64,000 nucleotides of DNA from an uncultured Flavobacteriales bacterium (GCA_913054135.1 CAJXJK010000017.1:1-64000), one strand, 5' to 3'. Counted from the stretch's first letter, positions 1 through 2,488 are shown. Notes: a model not told the origin generated them from the sequence alone. A program made the numbers and translations.

Positions 1-235
1 CTCCACCTTGTAATACATTTACAAACTGATCGTAAGAAACAGAGTTTGTAATGAATGCACCAGAAAGTGATGGCCACTGATTTCTGTGATTTAAATTAAT
101 TCTAGGACACCCATGTGATCCAGCCAAAGCAGGATTCAAATAAATTGGATTCGCGTAGAATTGCGTGAATTCAGGATCTTGTGCAAAACTTTGCATAGAT
201 GCTAAAACTGCCAAAATTGTAAAAATTCTCTTCAT
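1..235 (-). CDS. PorP/SprF family type IX secretion membrane protein, N-terminal part (runs off the left edge)
   Basis: Reverse-strand reading from the CAT at 233-235 gives MKRIFTILAVLASMQSFAQDPEFTQFYANPIYLNPALAGSHGCPRINLNHRNQWPSLSGAFITNSVSYDQFVNVLQGG: signal peptide plus the typical PorP/SprF start (QFYxNPxYLNPALAG...RNQW). Not in the ORF track because it is truncated. Confidence 0.9.
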   Translation of the reverse strand, partial: MKRIFTILAVLASMQSFAQDPEFTQFYANPIYLNPALAGSHGCPRINLNHRNQWPSLSGAFITNSVSYDQFVNVLQGG

Positions 236-266
236 AACCTCTCGTTTTTGTCCTTAGCTAAATCTG

Positions 267-2003
267 TTATTTTTTAATTGCACCATTAAATCTGATACCA
301 ATGTTGTGTGAACCAATCTGGCTGTCCATAAGGGTACTGTATGTGTGATCGTATTGATATATTACCTTGAAATGCTCAAACTTTAATCCTGCTGAAGCTG
401 TAAAGTCTTTCTTATGTGAAATTGAACCTCCTACCGTGAAGAAGCCGAATCTCAAATTAGCACCAGCCCAAACCTCTTGACGATTTGCATATTGGTGATA
501 AGCTGCAAATGGGCTTGCCGAGATAGTTCTCTTTCCGTTAACTGGATCATTTTCAAAATCAATCCCAACTAATCCATTCACTAATAATGGTGAAGCCGTT
601 GGAGTCGCATAACCTTCTTTGTTGTAAACATTTTCAAAATGTCTATTCAAGTTATCTACCGAGAATCCTGCGTAGAATTTGTTAGCATTAATCATGAAGC
701 CTGCGCCGTAATCTTTATACCAATGTTTTTGAACACCTAACATTTGAGGTTCGGCTGGAGTATTTAAGATTCTACCTCTCTCCATTTCTAATTGGCTTTC
801 AGGAGCTAATTTTTGACCGTTTGCATTTAACATCCCTAAAGTCACTTTAATTGCAGGTTCAAACACCACATTATCTCCAAACAAGATTTTAGGTGAGTAA
901 ATCAAGCTCATGTTGTAATCGTTATACTGTCCGTACTGGTAGTCTTTAACATTAGCAACAATTCCAACTCCACCTTTCATTTTTCTCACATAGCTATCAA
1001 ATGACATGGTCATGTTTTGAGAGTTTTGATCTGTACCTAACCATTGGCTTCTGTAATTCATTTCAAATCTTGAAGTATTCAACCCTCCAGCAAATGCTGG
1101 ATTGAAAGACAATACAGATGAATTTGGAATCAAGATGTCTGGATCTCTAAGGTTGGTAAGGTTAGTAGGCGGTACATCAAATGCATTCTCTACTTTGTTC
1201 CAGAAACGCTTCAATTTATTTTGCCAAGAGCTAAAATCATAGCTTACGTTCTTAGCTACATCAAAAGGAAGTTCAGTTAATTCAGGGTTATCGGCATACT
1301 GAGCATTTAATCCATCATTCTCAAACTTATTCAGCTCATCATTGAATGCGTTCTTATTCTCAGCATTTGGATTAGCCACAAAACCATTGGTAAAGTCAGC
1401 TTCAAATGTTGAAGCCTGATTACCGTTTTGATCAATTGGGTTTCCGTTTGCGTCAAAACGAACATTTGAATTTGTACCGTTCTGATTAGCATTAACGAAC
1501 TGGCTGATCACGTTCGAATTTGAGTTTTCATATCCAAAACCATTAAGCGCTAATTGATTTGCTTGAGTTCCGTCATTAAAACTATGATAGTTATAATCAT
1601 TTTCTAAATCAGATGTATTTTTAGTTTCAGCAATTAACTGATTTGAATTCTGTAAAAGTGAGTTATTATCATTCTCTGAGAATTGAGAAGAATTAGTGTT
1701 TAGTTCTGTAGATCCAGAACCATTATAAATAAGATAAGTTGAACCTAACAATAAGAATACAACTGCTGCTGCAGCTGACCAACCGATCCATCCGGCTGCG
1801 AATCTATTATCTTTCTGAAGTGCGTCAGCATTTGGGTATGTGAAAGCTTCGTTTTGAACGAAGGCATTGTTCCAAGCATCAGCTTCAACTTCAAACTCAG
1901 GGTGTTGAACAAGGAAATTCTCAAAGGCATCCATCTCTGTCCCAGAGAGGTTCCCTTCCTTGTAGTCAAACATCCACCTGTCAAAATTTTCAGGAATATT
2001 CAT
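267..2003 (-). CDS. Anti-sigma-like N-terminus + single TM + long Asn/Gln-rich linker + C-terminal PorP/SprF beta-barrel (candidate dual-membrane-spanning anti-sigma factor)
   Basis: N-term FDRWMFDYKEGNLSGTEMDAFENFLVQHPEFEVEADAWN resembles anti-sigma/FecR-type N-termini; TM AAAAVVFLLLGSTYLIY; C-term NPAFAGG...MNYRSQWLG...SHNIGIRFN is PorP/SprF-like. Start overlaps the sigma factor stop (2000-2003). Confidence 0.85.
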   Translation of the reverse strand: MNIPENFDRWMFDYKEGNLSGTEMDAFENFLVQHPEFEVEADAWNNAFVQNEAFTYPNADALQKDNRFAAGWIGWSAAAAVVFLLLGSTYLIYNGSGSTELNTNSSQFSENDNNSLLQNSNQLIAETKNTSDLENDYNYHSFNDGTQANQLALNGFGYENSNSNVISQFVNANQNGTNSNVRFDANGNPIDQNGNQASTFEADFTNGFVANPNAENKNAFNDELNKFENDGLNAQYADNPELTELPFDVAKNVSYDFSSWQNKLKRFWNKVENAFDVPPTNLTNLRDPDILIPNSSVLSFNPAFAGGLNTSRFEMNYRSQWLGTDQNSQNMTMSFDSYVRKMKGGVGIVANVKDYQYGQYNDYNMSLIYSPKILFGDNVVFEPAIKVTLGMLNANGQKLAPESQLEMERGRILNTPAEPQMLGVQKHWYKDYGAGFMINANKFYAGFSVDNLNRHFENVYNKEGYATPTASPLLVNGLVGIDFENDPVNGKRTISASPFAAYHQYANRQEVWAGANLRFGFFTVGGSISHKKDFTASAGLKFEHFKVIYQYDHTYSTLMDSQIGSHNIGIRFNGAIKK

Positions 2004-2488
2004 ACGAGTATTGTTAGATCTTTTAACTGTTTTTTAATCTTATTTCGGGCTCTAAACAAGTACACTTTAACCTGAGCTTCACTCAAGTCTAGAATTTCTC
2101 CTATTTCTTTGTAATTGTATCCTTCTAAATCTCTAAGAAGAATGATTGATTTTTGAACTGGTGGTAATTGACTTAATGTTTTTTGAATCACTTCTTGCAT
2201 CTCGTAAGACTTAGCATGTGATTCTTGCACTTGCGTAGAAGTAATTTCATCAGAATAAGTCATTCGACTTTTCTTCTTCATAAAATTAATCATGGCGTTA
2301 TGCGCACAAGTAAATAACCAAGGTTTAACTTTTTCAGTTTCTACCTTTTTTCTGTTCTTCCATAATTTCTCAAAAACGTCTTGTACAATATCGCTTGCAT
2401 CTTCTTTATGCTGAAGATACTTTAGCGCATAGCCATAAAGCCTACCGGAGTATTCTTTAACTGCCATATTGTATTCTCGTCTATTCAA
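2000..2488 (-). CDS. ECF (sigma-70 family) RNA polymerase sigma factor
   Basis: Region 2 (YALKYLQHKEDASDIVQDVFEKLWKNR) and region 4 (LPPVQKSIILLRDLEGYNYKEIGEILDLSEAQVKVYLFRARNKIKKQL). Confidence 0.93.
   Translation of the reverse strand: MNRREYNMAVKEYSGRLYGYALKYLQHKEDASDIVQDVFEKLWKNRKKVETEKVKPWLFTCAHNAMINFMKKKSRMTYSDEITSTQVQESHAKSYEMQEVIQKTLSQLPPVQKSIILLRDLEGYNYKEIGEILDLSEAQVKVYLFRARNKIKKQLKDLTILV

What the first reader, a model, noticed from the sequence alone, without database searches (positions are those of the whole stretch)
1..2488. PorP/SprF barrel fused to an anti-sigma-like inner-membrane domain, coupled to an ECF sigma factor
Seen: one 578-aa ORF has a short anti-sigma/FecR-like N-terminus, one TM helix, a long Asn/Gln-rich low-complexity linker and a C-terminal PorP/SprF beta-barrel. 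It overlaps the ECF sigma stop codon by 4 bp and is followed by a conventional PorP/SprF gene with its own signal peptide. Established: PorP/SprF proteins are T9SS-associated outer-membrane barrels; single polypeptides spanning both membranes with an anti-sigma end (dual-membrane-spanning anti-sigma factors) have been described in Bacteroides. Inference: this is a T9SS-flavoured version in which an outer-membrane barrel, possibly reporting T9SS status, directly gates a sigma factor across the periplasm without a separate receptor. I do not know whether a PorP/SprF-barrel version has been characterised.
Basis: partly seen in the sequence, partly recalled or inferred. Interest (0 to 1): 0.82.

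Follow-up and report, generated by a model that had tools for sequence, protein, structure and literature searches.

The report
Marine bacteria of the Crocinitomicaceae carry a single protein that appears to stretch from an outer-membrane barrel of the type IX secretion family, through the periplasm, to a cytoplasmic end that should hold a gene-switching sigma factor, and comparing genomes shows which envelope genes that switch probably controls.

Summary
Window 267-2003(-) encodes 578 aa: a conserved three-helix N-terminus, one TM helix, a 180-residue disordered Asn/Gln-rich tether and a C-terminal PorP/SprF barrel. It overlaps an ECF sigma gene by 4 bp and is followed by a separate PorP gene. 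It is not an assembly artefact: a family-wide profile finds it in 54 of 100 Crocinitomicaceae genomes, and it occurs in other Flavobacteriales families, nearly always as sigma | fusion | free PorP. Fused barrels form one clade. Their nearest relatives may be unfused barrels beside sigma/anti-sigma genes in Cytophaga and a Flavobacteriales MAG, suggesting one gene fusion. The layout matches the Dma (dual membrane-spanning anti-sigma) class of Bacteroides; the PorP-type barrel looks like a new variant. I also found the sigma factor's probable promoter, TGTAACTTT-N12-ATTGTTTTA: 101 sites versus 8 reversed-control sites in 100 genomes, with 47/54 fusion-bearing versus 8/46 other genomes positive. 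Beyond the operon itself, the sites precede almost only signal-peptide genes: a small lipoprotein family, OM barrels, PorP paralogues and a second sigma operon. Binding of the N-terminus to sigma, the signal, and any T9SS reporting are inferred, not shown.

The parts
2531..2560 (-). Predicted promoter of the sigma factor (autoregulation): TGTAACTTT-N12-ATTGTTTTA, 42 nt before the TTG start of sigma
   Evidence: Phylogenetic footprint in 18 upstream regions; exact match in window; family-wide scan 101 sites vs 8 reversed-control sites
2000..2488 (-). ECF sigma factor, 162 aa, TTG start
   Evidence: Sigma70_r2 1.9e-17, r4_2 2.8e-17; NF058625 139 bits vs cut-off 130, a marginal pass; 52-86% identical sigma next to the fusion in 20 relatives
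267..2003 (-). Fusion protein, 578 aa: putative anti-sigma domain + TM + tether + PorP/SprF barrel
1806..2003 (-). Residues 1-66: cytoplasmic putative anti-sigma domain; invariant F12, E16, G17, L19, W44; no Cys in 97 homologues (not a zinc anti-sigma domain)
   Evidence: Helices 7-16, 21-33, 35-47, pLDDT 84-91 for residues 1-50; median identity 62%, the most conserved part; invariant columns; best PDB folds are anti-sigma factors RslA and ChrR but at non-significant E >= 2.4
1722..1805 (-). Residues 67-94: single transmembrane helix
1176..1721 (-). Residues 95-276: disordered periplasmic tether, 145-263 residues in homologues, 20% median identity; short helix 260-275 before the barrel
   Evidence: pLDDT about 26-64 over most of it; lengths and composition
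270..1175 (-). Residues 277-578: PorP/SprF beta-barrel of the FadL/PorV fold, about 14 long strands
   Evidence: PF11751/TIGR03519; pLDDT about 85-97 over most of 291-570; Foldseek hits FadL 4.2e-7 and T9SS translocon chains 8gl6_F 4.3e-6 and 6h3i_F
2..235 (-). Free-standing PorP/SprF gene, 5' part only (contig edge), with its own signal peptide; full-length orthologues end in ...FRTISCPSF

Best explanation
This is a sigma/anti-sigma module of the dual-membrane-spanning (Dma-like) type in which the outer-membrane end is a PorP/SprF barrel. The N-terminal helical domain (1-66) binds and silences the co-transcribed ECF sigma factor; helix 67-94 anchors it in the inner membrane; residues 95-276 are a flexible tether across the periplasm; residues 277-578 are folded into the outer membrane. 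A change at the barrel (failed insertion, binding or loss of a partner such as a T9SS type-B C-terminal domain or the free PorP, or envelope deformation) is passed down the tether and frees the sigma factor, probably by proteolysis. Sigma then transcribes its own operon (sigma, fusion, free PorP) and a small envelope regulon from TGTAACTTT-N12-ATTGTTTTA promoters: a 125-140 aa lipoprotein family, ~270 aa OM barrels, PorP paralogues and, in some genera, a second sigma/anti-sigma operon. Shown by sequence: architecture, conservation, operon, promoter motif and its gene set. Inferred: anti-sigma activity, spanning of both membranes at once, the signal, proteolytic release.
For: Domain hits and AlphaFold model give ASD-like helices, TM, disordered tether and FadL/PorV-type barrel. 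Conserved in 54/100 family genomes with a clear score gap to other anti-sigmas (E <= 4.1e-19 versus >= 1.2e-11) and in other Flavobacteriales families. Sigma lies immediately upstream in nearly every locus and free PorP downstream wherever the contig reaches, with a clear exception in L164. N-terminus is the most conserved region, tether the least. Fused barrels have one origin; unfused barrels adjacent to sigma/anti-sigma genes in L174 and L175 group with them (long branches). Motif: 101 sites vs 8 controls at <=1 mismatch; 47/54 fusion-positive vs 8/46 fusion-negative genomes carry it, Fisher p 8.6e-13; 38 of 40 distinct non-sigma targets start with a hydrophobic signal-like segment (my count). 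In B. theta, loss of the same-layout Dma2 up-regulates das2 and its operon (PMC13088901).
Against: No direct evidence that residues 1-66 bind sigma: no Pfam domain, Foldseek matches to RslA/ChrR not significant, no co-fold was possible. Simultaneous residence in both membranes is inferred from layout. No type-B cargo gene lies in the operon, so a T9SS input is unsupported by neighbourhood. The motif-sigma link is by footprint and co-occurrence only, and 7 fusion-bearing genomes lack a <=1-mismatch site.
Confidence: 0.74

Rival explanations
1. The barrel senses T9SS traffic: like SprF/PorP it binds type-B C-terminal domains of T9SS cargo (or of the second anti-sigma, which carries such a domain), and occupancy sets sigma activity. 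(A sub-model of the best explanation: what the input is.)
For: PorP/SprF proteins bind type-B CTD cargo (PMC9143113; PMC12618676). The genome has SprA, 53 type-B CTDs over cut-off and about 29 PorP/SprF matches. The P. gingivalis CTD protein PorA influences PorXY-SigP (PMC7712824). A predicted target in 4-6 genomes is a second sigma operon whose IM-anchored partner ends in a CHU_C type-B domain.
Against: The fused barrel lacks the N-terminal QDPxFxQF segment of PorP (Pfam match begins at model position 16); no cargo gene in the operon; fused barrels branch away from the genome's ordinary PorPs; the CTD-bearing second anti-sigma also occurs in genomes without the fusion.
Confidence: 0.3
2. The barrel is a monitor of outer-membrane protein assembly: when it cannot be inserted, the unassembled barrel is recognised and the anti-sigma is degraded (an RseA/DegS-like role built into the anti-sigma itself). 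(Also a sub-model of the best explanation.)
For: The predicted regulon is almost wholly exported proteins, many of them small OM barrels and lipoproteins; a barrel tethered to the inner membrane is a natural substrate for such a check (inference).
Against: None of the targets identified here was recognised as a BAM component, periplasmic chaperone or protease, the usual members of such regulons; no cleavage site or protease was identified.
Confidence: 0.3
3. The fusion is simply a PorP-type outer-membrane protein with a long N-terminal anchor; its neighbour sigma is regulated by something else.
For: No recognised anti-sigma domain by Pfam.
Against: N-terminus more conserved than the barrel, shares the EGNLS...W signature with short anti-sigma-like proteins next to sigma genes in the same genome and across the phylum; next to sigma with overlapping start/stop in nearly all carriers.
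Confidence: 0.08
4. Assembly or frameshift artefact joining two genes.
For: Contig edge lies 266 bp away.
Against: Same fusion in at least 54 family genomes and about 100 full-length protein hits including isolates (Crocinitomix catalasitica, C. algicola, Putridiphycobacter roseus, Paracrocinitomix mangrovi); broken frames only in two MAG loci (L124, L153).
Confidence: 0.005

Closest known systems
[quoted passage not shown]
   Same: Layout: N-terminal sigma-binding domain, TM helix, long disordered tether, C-terminal beta-barrel; adjacent ECF sigma gene; sigma and operon genes induced when the anti-sigma is lost (PMC13088901)
   Different: Barrel here is PorP/SprF (FadL/PorV-like, about 14 strands); third gene is a free PorP, whereas dma2 is followed by DUF4943/DUF4858 genes; host lineage uses T9SS; motif-defined regulon differs. 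Sequence kinship with Dma proteins and ECF21 membership were not tested
PorP/SprF T9SS shuttle/anchor proteins
   Same: PF11751/TIGR03519 barrel, FadL/PorV fold
   Different: Anti-sigma-like N-terminus and IM anchor instead of a signal peptide; lacks the QDPxFxQF start; not next to a type-B CTD gene
FecA-FecR-FecI type cell-surface signalling
   Same: OM protein information reaching an ECF sigma through an IM-anchored anti-sigma
   Different: Receptor and anti-sigma are one chain; no TonB receptor and no FecR domain
PorXY-SigP regulation of T9SS in P. gingivalis
   Same: Links a T9SS-related surface protein (PorA) with an ECF sigma (PMC7712824)
   Different: Goes through a two-component system, no barrel-fused anti-sigma

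Membership tests
Dma (dual membrane-spanning anti-sigma) | N-terminal sigma-binding domain | tested here: inconclusive
   Conserved helical domain next to sigma; anti-sigma folds top the Foldseek list but not significantly; binding not tested
Dma (dual membrane-spanning anti-sigma) | Single transmembrane helix | tested here: met
   Helix 67-94, hydrophobic peak at 68
Dma (dual membrane-spanning anti-sigma) | Long intrinsically disordered tether | tested here: met
   Residues 95-256 mostly pLDDT < 50; 145-263 residues in homologues
Dma (dual membrane-spanning anti-sigma) | C-terminal beta-barrel | tested here: met
Dma (dual membrane-spanning anti-sigma) | Adjacent ECF sigma gene of group ECF21 | tested here: inconclusive
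   Adjacent ECF sigma: met. ECF21 group: no model available here; marginal NF058625 hit
Dma (dual membrane-spanning anti-sigma) | Sequence homology to Dma1/Dma2 | not tested
   Dma sequences were not obtained; the founding paper is not held
PorP/SprF | PF11751 / TIGR03519 above cut-off | tested here: met
   107.9 vs 22.3 bits; 119.4 vs 90.55 bits
PorP/SprF | Cleavable signal peptide and N-terminal QDPxFxQF start | tested here: not met
   66-residue N-terminal extension and TM; Pfam match starts at model position 16
PorP/SprF | Gene beside a type-B CTD cargo gene | tested here: not met
   None recognised in the operon or its flanks in relatives; in the window the nearest TIGR04131 match is at 34355
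PorP/SprF | Binds type-B CTD cargo | not testable with these tools
   Needs pull-down
FecR/FecA cell-surface signalling | FecR domain and TonB-dependent receptor | tested here: not met
   No FecR hit; no receptor gene in the operon
Zinc anti-sigma (ZAS) domain | HxxxCxxC motif | tested here: not met
   No Cys in the N-terminal domain of 97 homologues

The most novel reading that the evidence does not exclude
Two sigma/anti-sigma pairs wired through the two halves of a T9SS recognition pair: one anti-sigma carries the receptor (PorP/SprF barrel), the other, in an operon predicted to be driven by the first sigma, is an inner-membrane protein ending in a T9SS type-B sorting domain, the known ligand of PorP barrels. 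The two tails meet in the envelope, so T9SS traffic competing for the barrel would be read directly as transcription.
Probability: 0.12. Interest if true: 0.92.

Novelty: new variant of a known kind. Interest (0 to 1): 0.68.

Why it matters
Dma proteins have been studied only in Bacteroides, where neither the signal nor the role of the barrel is understood. A version whose barrel belongs to a family with a known ligand class (type-B CTDs) gives a concrete input to test. The unfused relatives offer a route by which such proteins arise, and the motif turns an orphan sigma factor into one with a named, testable promoter and gene list. It would be a direct outer-membrane-to-transcription link in T9SS bacteria that needs no separate receptor chain.

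Tried and rejected
Sequencing-error or frameshift fusion: rejected. FecR/FecA-type system: no FecR domain or TonB receptor. Zinc anti-sigma domain: no cysteines. True NF058625 (PG0214/GFO_1088) family: high-scoring members are a different sigma followed by short anti-sigma-like and small secreted proteins; ours passes only marginally. PDB sequence search for the protein or its profile: nothing meaningful. Single-sequence search under-counted the fusion, so an N-terminal profile was used. The same motif scan at 3 mismatches is noise (real about equal to control); only <=1 mismatch was used. A tight coupling of the second sigma operon to the fusion: not supported family-wide (present in 83 of 100 genomes, many without the fusion). 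No literature on a PorP-type version was found in the held library, but the founding Dma paper is not held, so it may already mention such members.

Full report
WHAT IS THERE. On the minus strand at the left edge of the window (which is the end of contig C17 of a 4.05-Mb genome) lie three genes in a row: an ECF sigma factor (2000-2488), the 578-aa fusion (267-2003, overlapping the sigma stop by 4 bp) and a free-standing PorP/SprF gene cut by the edge (2-235). The fusion consists of a helical N-terminus, one transmembrane helix (67-94), a low-complexity linker with 27.6% Asn+Gln, and a PorP/SprF barrel (PF11751 8.9e-31; TIGR03519 119.4 bits against a cut-off of 90.55).

STRUCTURE. AlphaFold2 on 97 homologues gives three short helices (7-16, 21-33, 35-47; pLDDT mostly 80-91), a long TM helix 67-94, a disordered stretch up to about residue 256 (pLDDT mostly below 50), a short helix 260-275 and a barrel of about 14 long strands at pLDDT about 85-97 over most of its length. 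Foldseek places the barrel with FadL (4.2e-7) and with barrel chains of the T9SS translocon, 8gl6_F (4.3e-6) and 6h3i_F. The N-terminal domain's best PDB matches are the anti-sigma factors RslA and ChrR, but at non-significant E-values of 2.4 and above. It has no cysteine in 97 homologues, so it is not a zinc anti-sigma domain.

CONSERVATION. The N-terminal domain is the best conserved part (median identity 62%), the barrel next (49%), the tether hardly (20%, 145-263 residues long). F12, E16, G17, L19 and W44 are invariant across families. A profile of the N-terminus finds the fusion in 54 of 100 Crocinitomicaceae genomes (E <= 4.1e-19), separated by a wide gap from conventional 300-390-aa anti-sigma-like proteins (E >= 1.2e-11); a few of the 54 are cut by contig ends. 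In a 250-genome sample of the phylum it finds, outside the own genome, only weak matches, nearly all in short reading frames. Named carriers include Crocinitomix catalasitica, C. algicola, Putridiphycobacter roseus and a Brumimicrobium genome and Paracrocinitomix mangrovi; other Flavobacteriales families carry it too. The order sigma | fusion | free PorP is seen in nearly every locus where the contig is long enough; the clear exception is L164/G057, with a diverged barrel and no free PorP. Broken frames occur only in two MAG loci (L124, L153).

ORIGIN. Unfused versions exist: Cytophaga aurantiaca has sigma, a 234-aa anti-sigma-like protein and, 6 bp later, a separate PorP-like barrel (L174); a Flavobacteriales MAG has PorP-like barrel, sigma and anti-sigma overlapping in one operon (L175); a Bacteroidetes MAG has sigma, anti-sigma, an OM protein and a PorP ending in CPSL (L172). 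In a tree of 49 PorP barrels the fused barrels have a single origin (support 99/88), the L175 barrel joins them at 100/89 and L174 at 88/26, while the operon's free PorPs form another clade (99/97) away from both (L174 and L175 are long branches, so this is suggestive). The simplest reading is one fusion of neighbouring anti-sigma and barrel genes. The same genome also keeps an unfused relative: sigma, a 335-aa double-domain anti-sigma and a separate OMP_b-brl_2 barrel at C3 (L081).

REGULON. Aligning upstream regions of the sigma gene from 18 genomes showed a conserved block, TGTAACTTT-N12-ATTGTTTTA, of ECF-promoter shape; in the window it is 2531-2560(-), exact, 42 nt before the TTG start. 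Scanning 100 family genomes at <=1 mismatch gave 101 sites against 8 for the reversed control. Sites occur in 47 of 54 genomes with the fusion and 8 of 46 without (Fisher p 8.6e-13). The genes behind the sites fall into families recurring across genera: the sigma operon itself; a 125-140-aa lipoprotein (consensus SCRKE..T.A.I.V.D..G.P...AMVRLY, weak Big_1/CarboxypepD_reg similarity); ~270-aa OM proteins; PorP paralogues; a second sigma operon. Of 40 distinct non-sigma targets, 38 begin with a hydrophobic signal-like segment. The sigma factor therefore probably controls a small set of exported envelope proteins and itself. This is prediction: no expression data were available.

SECOND SIGMA OPERON. 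In G000, G002, G003 and G006 (and with weaker sites in G028 and G356) the motif lies before a second sigma/anti-sigma-like pair. The partner protein has a soluble N-terminus, one TM segment and no signal peptide, then PKD domains and a C-terminal CHU_C type IX secretion signal domain (40.1, 35.8 and 55.2 bits, cut-off 27). A T9SS sorting domain on an inner-membrane anti-sigma-like protein is unexpected, and such domains are the known ligands of PorP/SprF barrels (PMC9143113; PMC12618676). It exists in 83 of 100 family genomes, with or without the fusion, so any link is not obligatory.

MECHANISM. Most likely the protein works as Dma1/Dma2 of B. theta are thought to work: anti-sigma end, TM, disordered tether, barrel, with the sigma freed when the protein is lost or perturbed; deletion of dma2 raises das2 and the operon genes (PMC13088901). 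What perturbs it is open. Two inputs are about equally credible: binding of T9SS type-B cargo by the PorP barrel, or failure of outer-membrane assembly. The missing QDPxFxQF start and lack of a neighbouring cargo gene count against simple cargo shuttling; the envelope-protein regulon fits either.

KNOWN OR NEW. The class (Dma) is known from Bacteroides (PMC13088901). I found no description of a PorP/SprF-barrel member in the held literature, but the founding 2024 paper is not held and Dma sequences could not be compared, so I claim 'works like a Dma', and leave family membership open. Verdict: new variant of a known kind, with a newly predicted promoter and regulon.

Noticed in passing
G000:C2:283317-285335 (L276:1218-3236); also L189, L243, L244, L312-L341: Second ECF sigma followed by a 420-525-aa protein with soluble N-terminus, TM, PKD domains and a C-terminal CHU_C/type-B T9SS sorting domain: an inner-membrane anti-sigma-like protein with a T9SS signal, found in 83 of 100 Crocinitomicaceae genomes.
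   Followed up: partly
window 1-235 and G000:C23:1-253 (L080): Contigs C17 and C23 both end inside a PorP gene with identical mature protein sequence so far as seen but different signal peptides, sharing exactly 55 bp at the edge; many relatives' contigs also break in this gene, suggesting recurrent duplication or gene conversion of the free PorP.
   Followed up: partly
L116, L117, L118, L122; L257:4582: A second PorP copy (a fragment in L116) 0.3-1.2 kb downstream of the operon's PorP; in L117, L118 and L122 it has its own copy of the sigma promoter motif.
   Followed up: partly
A4 (free PorPs); G000:C8:145538 target (L240:1056-1478): Free PorPs of the operon end in an almost invariant ...SCPSF; an unrelated 134-140-aa secreted motif target in the same genome ends in ...TGCPSF.
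   Followed up: no
window 2486-2488 and sigma starts in cluster 0: Sigma starts with TTG in nearly all carriers across genera, suggesting conserved weak translation initiation.
   Followed up: no
G000:C3:320416-322861 (L081:8417-10861): Unfused paralogous module: sigma, 335-aa anti-sigma-like protein with two N-terminal domains, separate OMP_b-brl_2 barrel.
   Followed up: partly
L164/L077 (G057): Fusion whose barrel no longer matches PF11751, without a free PorP.
   Followed up: no
G314:C30:228824 (714-aa frame), G331:C306 (939-aa frame), G178:C3 (509-aa frame): Weak anti-sigma N-terminus matches in other long reading frames, possible further fusions with other domains.
   Followed up: no
window 2686-6533: Conserved neighbours in several genera: divergent AMP-binding acid-CoA-ligase-like gene, NadC-like gene, NtrC-type regulator.
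   Followed up: no
L134, L139, L160 (titled Chitinophaga pinensis), L151, L169 (Chryseobacterium gleum), L164 (Saccharospirillaceae): MAG records whose species titles conflict with their Flavobacteriales-type content; probably mislabelled.
   Followed up: no
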